From assembly GCA_021323995.1 (NCBI GenBank), contig JAJPJY010000069.1:1-43147 (forward strand): DNA of 43,147 nt, read 5' to 3'. This DNA comes from a bacterium (lineage in GTDB: Archaea > Thermoproteota > Bathyarchaeia > 40CM-2-53-6). Under the pieces are notes generated by a model that saw only the letters and a program-made list of their open reading frames with translations, ran no database searches and was not told where the DNA came from. Shown here piece after piece: positions 38,078 through 40,545 of this stretch. Both the position numbers and the translations under genes were made by a program. The first letter of the stretch is position 1, and every line of letters starts with the position of its first letter.

Positions 38078-38201
38078 CGCCGGGAGTGGGATTTGAACCC
38101 ACGCGTCCGTGAGGACACAGGCTGACAGGAGAGCCATTTTCCAGACATGGGCCCGCACTGTTCTGAGCGGACTGCCCGGTACCAGGCTCCGGAATCCCGG
38201 C
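38078..38201 (-). tRNA. tRNA-Ser(GGA) with two BHB-type introns (38147-38171 at 29/30; 38124-38138 at 37/38); CCA encoded at 38075-38077
   Basis: Spliced sequence: GCCGGGA TT CCGG AGCCTGGTA CCGG G CAGGT CTGGAAA GCCTG T GTCC TCAC GGAC GC GTGGG TTCAAAT CCCAC TCCCGGC G: all arms pair, long variable arm, discriminator G. Confidence 0.9.
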
Positions 38202-38500
38202 CCGACAAGCCACAATGTCCATGGACTATTTTTCCCCTTTGGACACTGAAAACAACCCGCGAATCATCCGGAATGAGATGATGAGAAGTAGAGTGGCGAT
38301 GGGAGCGAGCCAGCCAGCAACCCTTAACGGGCGTATTGGCAGTGCTCGCGCCCGGGGGACGCCACCCTTGTATTGGGTTTACCGGTGAAAACGGTCCTAA
38401 GCTATGTGTTACCCGTGACCATGAGGACCCGTAACCGTGGGAACCTAGCCCGGTAGGCACGATTTTAAGAGACCAAGCCGCCCATTGGAGCAGGGTAGTT

Positions 38501-39349
38501 TTGGACCACTGCGCAGTATGCGGGGCAGAGGAGTTCATTCCCTACAACTGTCGATACTGTGGCGGCGTCCACTGCGTCTACCATCGACTACCCGAGAACC
38601 ATGAATGCCCAAACATAGCCCAGGCACGCGCGCCCCGGCAGAACGTTCAGCTAGAACGTCGACGAACCGGGACCACTCTACGACTAGTCCGGTCTCCCCG
38701 AATCGCCATGATGCCCGGCCGAGAAATTCTCGCACTCTCCGTCGCTTGGATCGTCCTTGGAATCAGCTTCTCCACCCGGTGGATGTACCTAGGCTGGCTC
38801 TCGCAGCCCGTAGCTTTCCTCGAAATCTTCCTCCTAACATTGCTGATCATTGGCACCGGCTTTCTCGGACACGAACTAGCCCACAAGCTTGTAGCCCAGC
38901 GTTACGGTGCATGGGCAGAGTTCAGACTCTGGACTATCGGCGCCATAATGGCGTTAGCCTTCGCGGCCATACCCCCAGGAAATGTTGTCTTCGCCGCGCC
39001 AGGAGCAGTCTACATCGCGTCACGCTCTAGATACCTTGCTGATGTTATGGACCGGAAAACTAACGGAATAGTCTCCCTCGTCGGACCCCTCGTCAACGTT
39101 GCAGCAGCAGGAGTCGCCGGATTACTCTACGCCGGCCTCTCAGCTGCTCGTATAGGGATGACGATCAGCGGCTTCAACCCGCTCCTCTGGGCTATCCAGA
39201 TCAACCTCTGGCTGGGAGCGTTCAACATGATACCGCTCTTCATTCTCGACGGTCAGAAAGTGCTCAGCTGGAACAAGACGATCTGGGCATTGATAACAAT
39301 CCCGCTATGGACAGCAACAGCCCTCAGCATCCTACTACTATTCCCGTGA
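38501..39349 (+). CDS. AN1-type zinc finger fused to M50-type (site-2 protease-like) membrane metalloprotease
   Basis: CAVCGAEEFIPYNCRYCGGVHCVYHRLPENHECP; then FLGHELAHKLVAQRYG (HExxH) and FNMIPLFILDGQKVL. Confidence 0.85.
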   Translation: MDHCAVCGAEEFIPYNCRYCGGVHCVYHRLPENHECPNIAQARAPRQNVQLERRRTGTTLRLVRSPRIAMMPGREILALSVAWIVLGISFSTRWMYLGWLSQPVAFLEIFLLTLLIIGTGFLGHELAHKLVAQRYGAWAEFRLWTIGAIMALAFAAIPPGNVVFAAPGAVYIASRSRYLADVMDRKTNGIVSLVGPLVNVAAAGVAGLLYAGLSAARIGMTISGFNPLLWAIQINLWLGAFNMIPLFILDGQKVLSWNKTIWALITIPLWTATALSILLLFP

Positions 39350-39500: not shown

Positions 39501-40545
39501 CTAGGATGAGGTTGCAACCTGGACAGTCTGGCTCGGCCGCGACTTCCACAATCGGGGATAAGTGTCGACCGGCATGATCACCCGGACCGTCTTGGCAGCA
39601 ATCCCTCGTTCTTCTTTCATTATCTGCTCGCTCGACATCAATGCTCTAGACAATGCGACCAGCTCCTCCTTCAACGTGAACAATGCGATCGGCGTACGGG
39701 GATAGATCTTGTCGCTAAGCCGGACAATTCCCGGAACCGCCAGCTCCGCACCGTGACAGATAGAACTGACCGCAGAGTCACGCAAGTACACGCGCGGAAT
39801 GTAGTCGAACGCTGATTCCATCGGCTTGACAATTTTTCGAAACAATTCCTCTCTCTTTTCGCCGGTAGACTGTGACAGCTCTAGCACGTCGTAGAGCGAT
39901 TGAATGTCGGATTCGCTGAAGCTGCCCGCACGAGTCCTCCTCAGCTCTCGCATGTGAGCACCCACCTGGAGCACTTCGCCTAGGTCATAGACGAGTTTTC
40001 GGATGTAGGTTCCGGCTTGGCATCCGACCCTGAACAGGACCTGTCGACCATCAATCTCTACATCTCTGATGTAGTAGATCCGTCTTTTTCGAAGATCCCT
40101 TCTCACCGCCGCCCTTACCGGCGGCCTCTGAAGAATATCGCCAACAAACTCGTTGAGTGCGGCTTCTATCTTAGGTTGGTCTATGTCTCCGTGTAGTGCC
40201 ATGAGACAGACGTATTCTTTGCCGGTGAGGAGAAACGCCTGGATCGTCTTGGTAGCGTCTTCGAGTGCTAGCGGCAAGACACCGGTGACCATCGGATTGC
40301 TCCGACCCTTGTCGGGTCTCTAGAGTTCCGCCGTGGCCAGCGTGTTTCAATCCTAGCATTCTTTTCACCCACGCCACAACCTCGTGGCTTGACGGTCCAG
40401 ACGGCTTATCCAGGTTGATCAGTCCAAACCGGATGTGCTGGTCTAACGGTCTCTTCAGAGGAGGACAACCGTACGATGGGTCGGTCTCTTCTTCGAGCTT
40501 GACCAGCAGTTTTCTCTCAGTTTCCCATGGCGCGATCTGAGACAC
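39501..40545 (-). CDS. cbf5: Archaeal tRNA/rRNA pseudouridine synthase Cbf5, interrupted by a 22-nt BHB intron (40298-40319)
   Basis: Exon 1 ...[10 protein letters not shown] and exon 2 ...[22 protein letters not shown] join as [18 protein letters not shown] after intron removal; spliced CDS is 1023 nt = 341 codons. Confidence 0.93.

What the first reader, a model, noticed from the sequence alone, without database searches (positions are those of the whole stretch)
38078..38201. tRNA-Ser(GGA) with two introns, one at a non-canonical site
The unspliced gene does not fold as a tRNA. Removing 25 nt (TCCGCTCAGAACAGTGCGGGCCCAT) after position 29 and 15 nt (AATGGCTCTCCTGTC) after position 37 gives an 84-nt type-II tRNA-Ser with every arm paired. 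The first intron has a perfect BHB: central helix GGGC/GCCC, bulges AGT and ATG, inner helix CCGC/GCGG. The second has a relaxed motif with one U-U mismatch in the central helix. The anticodon stem exists only after both removals, so the 29/30 intron splits the stem itself. Multi-intron tRNAs are established mainly in Thermoproteales.
Basis: partly seen in the sequence, partly recalled or inferred. Interest (0 to 1): 0.82.

Follow-up and report, generated by a model that had tools for sequence, protein, structure and literature searches.

The report
Archaeal serine tRNA with two introns
This is a serine transfer-RNA gene from a soil archaeon (Bathyarchaeia) that is interrupted twice and must be spliced to work; the kind of gene is already known from other archaea, but here the double interruption is shown to be conserved across the genus, its family and much of its order.

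Summary
The finding holds. Window 38201→38078 (minus strand) encodes an 84-nt tRNA-Ser(GGA) interrupted by a 25-nt intron at position 29/30 and a 15-nt intron at 37/38. Removing both gives a clean tRNA-Ser(GGA). Orthologs were found in 34 other genomes of the same genus, family and order. All 36 sequences (two from one genome) splice in silico to tRNA-Ser(GGA); exons are 91% identical to the query in the median, introns 60%. The inner helix of the first intron covaries. One relative lacks intron 1 exactly, and its anticodon stem is intact. The host is a bathyarchaeon with a catalytic EndA carrying the crenarchaeal specificity-loop lysine, a second EndA lacking catalytic Tyr and His, and RtcB: the (αβ)2 machinery known to cut relaxed motifs. 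Both the 29/30 position and multi-intron tRNAs are already described; several other tRNAs of this genome also parse best with two introns. This is a new member of a known kind, in a lineage for which the searched literature reports none. No RNA data exist here.

The parts
38078..38201 (-). tRNA-Ser(GGA) gene with two introns (124 nt; mature 84 nt, type II with long variable arm)
38172..38201 (-). exon 1: acceptor 5' strand, D arm, anticodon-stem positions 27-29
38147..38171 (-). intron 1, 25 nt TCCGCTCAGAACAGTGCGGGCCCAT, at 29/30; motif GGGC AG|T CCGC ... GCGG GCCC AT|G (HBh')
   Evidence: alifold consensus
38139..38146 (-). exon 2: GTCTGGAA, positions 30-37 including anticodon GGA
38124..38138 (-). 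intron 2, 15 nt AATGGCTCTCCTGTC, at canonical 37/38; motif CTGG AA|A ... CCTG TC|A with a U33-U mismatch and the anticodon stem as outer helix (hBH)
38078..38123 (-). exon 3: position 38, anticodon-stem 3' strand, variable arm, T arm, acceptor 3' strand, discriminator G

Best explanation
The locus is the functional, apparently only gene for tRNA-Ser(GGA) (codons UCU/UCC) in this bathyarchaeal genome. Its transcript carries two protein-spliced archaeal introns. Inferred order: an (αβ)2 EndA first cuts the 29/30 intron at the HBh' motif (central helix of tRNA nt 24-27 with the intron's GCCC), and RtcB joins the exons. This completes the anticodon stem 27-31/39-43. That stem is the outer helix of the hBH motif of the 37/38 intron, which is then cut and ligated. 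Shown: gene structure, conservation, covariation, and presence of the enzymes. Inferred: transcription, splicing, exact junctions in the cell, and order.
For: Spliced sequence is a full tRNA-Ser(gga). All 36 sequences splice to tRNA-Ser(gga); exons have median identity 0.91 to the query, introns 0.60. Intron 1 length ranges 15-32 nt and intron 2 11-34 nt at fixed sites. Central helix 1 pairs fully in all but 2 of 33 distinct sequences. The inner helix covaries. RNAalifold over all two-intron orthologs returns the central and inner helices of motif 1. L054 (G026) lacks intron 1 with a continuous stem CAGGC/GCCTG and keeps intron 2. Two EndA genes are in this genome and in most of 40 relatives. 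The α protein matches Aeropyrum 3p1z at E=1.1e-43, with catalytic Tyr/His/Lys and the K44-equivalent of the Crenarchaea-specific loop. RtcB is present. PMC8450103 describes closely spaced introns where one must be removed before the second BHB can form. PMC6379350 ties the loop lysine to relaxed-motif cleavage.
Against: No RNA evidence. The single-sequence minimum-energy fold of the precursor is not the BHB fold (-61.4 against -56.3 kcal/mol with motif 1 enforced). Motif 2 is weak: U33 opposes U in 24 of 34 distinct sequences and its inner helix is about 1 bp, so intron 2 rests mainly on the tRNA fold, the canonical site and conservation. The intron-2 border has a one-nucleotide A ambiguity (37/38 or 38/39). 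The order of removal is reasoned from structure only.
Confidence: 0.95

Rival explanations
1. The gene is a decayed tRNA pseudogene whose inserts only happen to allow a tRNA reading.
For: General tRNA finders miss it; its Rfam score is only just above the cut-off.
Against: Exons are 91% and introns 60% identical in the median over 34 compared orthologs; every one of 36 sequences splices to tRNA-Ser(gga); the inner helix of intron 1 covaries; no other full-length tRNA-Ser(GGA) was found in this genome.
Confidence: 0.02
2. There is one intron only, in a different place; for example ARAGORN's reading as tRNA-Asp(GTC) with a 42-nt intron.
For: ARAGORN with introns allowed returns this reading for the unspliced gene.
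Against: That reading gives a lower score than the two-intron reading (101.3 against 117.6). In the orthologs the intron sequences vary in length while the exons stay constant, and L054 lacks exactly the proposed intron 1.
Confidence: 0.01
3. Both introns are real but are removed in any order, perhaps helped by pairing between intron 2 and the D arm or intron 1 in the precursor.
For: In the precursor fold the D-arm GGAGCC pairs with intron-2 GGCTCT, and a GGCTC/GGCTT stretch recurs in intron 2 of most, but not all, orthologs.
Against: The outer helix of motif 2 is the anticodon stem, which intron 1 splits. L020, L021, L048, L049, L054 and L055 lack the GGCTY stretch.
Confidence: 0.15

Closest known systems
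Multi-intron tRNAs of Thermoproteales (for example Pyrobaculum islandicum tRNA-Pro(UGG), introns at 25/26, 56/57 and the canonical site; cited in PMC4090602)
   Same: Canonical and non-canonical introns together in one tRNA gene; relaxed HBh'/hBH motifs; (αβ)2 endonuclease.
   Different: A soil bathyarchaeon; tRNA-Ser(GGA), positions 29/30 and 37/38; conserved over the genus and into other families of its order.
Archaeal tRNA introns at position 29/30 (position listed in PMC4090602)
   Same: Same insertion point splitting the anticodon stem.
   Different: Only the host lineage and the tRNA; the position itself is not new.
Close-spaced introns requiring iterative removal (PMC8450103)
   Different: Here the second motif's outer helix is the anticodon stem that the first intron splits, and one relative without intron 1 is at hand.
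(αβ)2 EndA of Aeropyrum pernix (PDB 3p1z; PMC6379350)
   Same: A catalytic subunit with Tyr/His/Lys and the loop lysine (A. pernix K44 aligned to K42 here), and a second, structural subunit.
   Different: Sequence relative only; substrate range not measured.

Membership tests
Archaeal BHB-type (EndA-spliced) tRNA intron | Removal restores a canonical tRNA | tested here: met
   36 of 36 sequences give tRNA-Ser(gga)
Archaeal BHB-type (EndA-spliced) tRNA intron | Intron 1: two 3-nt bulges about a 4-bp central helix | tested here: met
   GGGC/GCCC with AG|T and AT|G; 31 of 33 distinct sequences pair fully; alifold consensus
Archaeal BHB-type (EndA-spliced) tRNA intron | Intron 1: strict hBHBh' with both flanking helices | tested here: not met
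   Inner helix 4 bp, no outer helix (direct reading of the sequence): relaxed HBh' form, itself a documented form (PMC4090602)
Archaeal BHB-type (EndA-spliced) tRNA intron | Intron 2: full 4-bp central helix | tested here: not met
   3 of 4 pairs, U33-U mismatch; inner helix about 1 bp; outer helix is the 5-bp anticodon stem: relaxed hBH form
Archaeal BHB-type (EndA-spliced) tRNA intron | Cleavage by EndA and ligation by RtcB in the cell | not testable with these tools
   Both genes present; no RNA or biochemical data
(αβ)2-type EndA | Separate catalytic and structural subunit genes | tested here: met
   189-aa protein with catalytic Tyr/His/Lys and 185-aa paralog lacking Tyr and His
(αβ)2-type EndA | Crenarchaea-specific loop with lysine | tested here: met
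   Alignment to 3p1z: A. pernix K44 aligned to K42 of the query; role of K44 from PMC6379350
(αβ)2-type EndA | Heterotetramer assembly and cleavage of relaxed motifs | not tested
   No complex model or assay

The most novel reading that the evidence does not exclude
This lineage of Bathyarchaeia is a second centre of multi-intron tRNA genes, comparable to Thermoproteales but in soil. In its tRNA-Ser(GGA) an obligate splicing order (29/30 before 37/38) has been kept across several families.
Probability: 0.6. Interest if true: 0.45.

Novelty: new member of a known kind. Interest (0 to 1): 0.32.

Why it matters
It extends multi-intron tRNA genes, described mostly for Thermoproteales, to a large uncultured soil clade with the matching endonuclease type. 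The relatives supply a natural comparison: intron 1 is precisely absent in one, and both introns vary in length and sequence in the rest. That makes the co-evolution of endonuclease and tRNA genes testable outside Thermoproteales. It is also a practical warning: a standard tRNA finder misses or misnames this gene.

Tried and rejected
Rejected: the pseudogene reading, and the tRNA-Asp(GTC) one-intron reading (see rivals). A conserved pairing between intron 2 (GGCTY) and the D arm or intron 1 was considered; it is absent from six orthologs, and the all-sequence alifold gives motif 1 but not that pairing. A first version of the intron-2 parser mis-set the border in some sequences and was replaced. 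In one search ARAGORN's isotype calls for some weak loci (for example L098, L099, L100) are unreliable, so the census is only approximate. PMC1852824 and PMC3239211 were not held. The literature search for Bathyarchaeia with tRNA introns found no paper on the subject; most subscription papers are not in that library.

Full report
Observation. The minus strand of 38201-38078 reads as an interrupted tRNA. ARAGORN without introns finds nothing in the window, while Rfam's tRNA model matches exactly 38078-38201 at 30.8 bits. An unguided test of all BHB-like single and double excisions recovered the same first intron and a second excision in the anticodon loop for this gene. In standard numbering the sites are 29/30 and 37/38. 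The second site has a one-base ambiguity because A38 equals the first intron base.

Motif anatomy. Intron 1: central helix GGGC (tRNA 24-27) with GCCC, bulges AG|T and AT|G, inner helix CCGC/GCGG. The bases outside the bulges do not pair (C·U, C·C), so this is the relaxed HBh' form and not a full BHB. Intron 2: central helix CUGG (32-35) with CCUG has a U33·U mismatch, the inner helix is about one pair, and the outer helix is the anticodon stem, so it is an hBH form. Because intron 1 splits that stem between 29 and 30, motif 2 can be complete only after intron 1 is gone. This is inference from structure; the same situation in other archaeal tRNAs is described in PMC8450103.

Comparison. Searching 40 related genomes with the 124-nt gene gave full-length orthologs across the genus and in other families of the order. 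With further loci fetched by place this made 36 sequences from 35 genomes, the query included. After removal of the introns all 36 are called tRNA-Ser(gga); exons have a median identity of 0.91 to the query and the introns 0.60. Intron 1 ranges from 15 to 32 nt and intron 2 from 11 to 34 nt. The inner helix of intron 1 changes by compensation (third pair A-U 13, C-G 7, G-C 6), and 26 of 31 distinct introns form at least 3 inner pairs, against at most 18 in 2000 reshufflings (relatedness is not removed by this control). RNAalifold over all two-intron orthologs returns the central and inner helices of motif 1, although the single-sequence minimum-energy fold of this precursor is a different hairpin, about 5 kcal/mol more stable. 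One ortholog (L054, genome G026) lacks intron 1 exactly and has the uninterrupted stem CAGGC/GCCTG with a 21-nt intron at 37/38.

Host and machinery. Nearest named relatives by the EndA protein are MAGs, most of them with soil-depth sample names, labelled Candidatus Bathyarchaeota, archaeon or Crenarchaeota; eight of nine named genomes tested hold the full-length gene. The genome has two PF01974 genes. One protein has Tyr, His and Lys and the Crenarchaea-specific-loop lysine aligned to A. pernix K44. The other lacks Tyr and His. Most relatives also have two genes. RtcB is present. By PMC6379350 such (αβ)2 enzymes with the loop lysine cut relaxed motifs.

Context. In a rough census of 31 tRNA loci of this genome most need at least one intron removed. 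Several parse best with two: Gly(TCC), Gly(GCC), Gly(CCC), Ser(TGA), Ala(TGC), Ala(GGC) and Gln(TTG). Leu(TAG) has an intron at the same point of the anticodon stem. So this gene is typical of its genome.

Known or new. Position 29/30, canonical plus non-canonical introns in one gene, and relaxed motifs are all described (PMC4090602; PMC4033280). Multi-intron genes are said to be prominent in Thermoproteales, and Crenarchaeota and Thaumarchaeota are cited for multiple noncanonical introns. Nothing on tRNA introns of Bathyarchaeia was found in the library searched. I therefore rate it a new member of a known kind.

Side finding. Between this tRNA and a zf-AN1/M50 protein gene lies a conserved, covarying RNA-like element (38291-38469) with no Rfam match, present in 19 of 151 genomes of the class sampled and in a single copy in nearly all of them. 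It is listed under noticed in passing and may deserve its own study.

Noticed in passing
window 38291-38469 (+): Conserved non-coding element upstream of ORF 38501-39349 (zf-AN1 + Peptidase_M50). Helices GUGGCG/CGCCAC (invariant in 19), GCGAGC/GCUCGC (A-U to G-C change) and GUUAC/GUAAC (U-A to A-U change) hold in 19 sequences; single copy in nearly all, in the genus and one other genus of the family, not found in the rest of 151 class genomes; no Rfam match. This genome's RNase P RNA and SRP RNA lie elsewhere. Candidate unclassified structured leader RNA or ncRNA.
   Followed up: partly
own genome, loci L086, L093, L094, L097, L101, L104, L106, L107: Many other tRNA genes of this genome parse best with one or two introns, including T-arm introns in Gly(TCC) and Gly(GCC) and an anticodon-stem (29/30) intron in Leu(TAG).
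   Followed up: partly
G000:C54 (L101, L118): tRNA-Ser(TGA), itself probably with two introns, lies less than 1 kb from the RtcB ligase gene at the end of the same contig.
   Followed up: no
window 39501-40292 (-): A Cbf5/TruB-like pseudouridine synthase with a PUA domain close to the tRNA gene.
   Followed up: no
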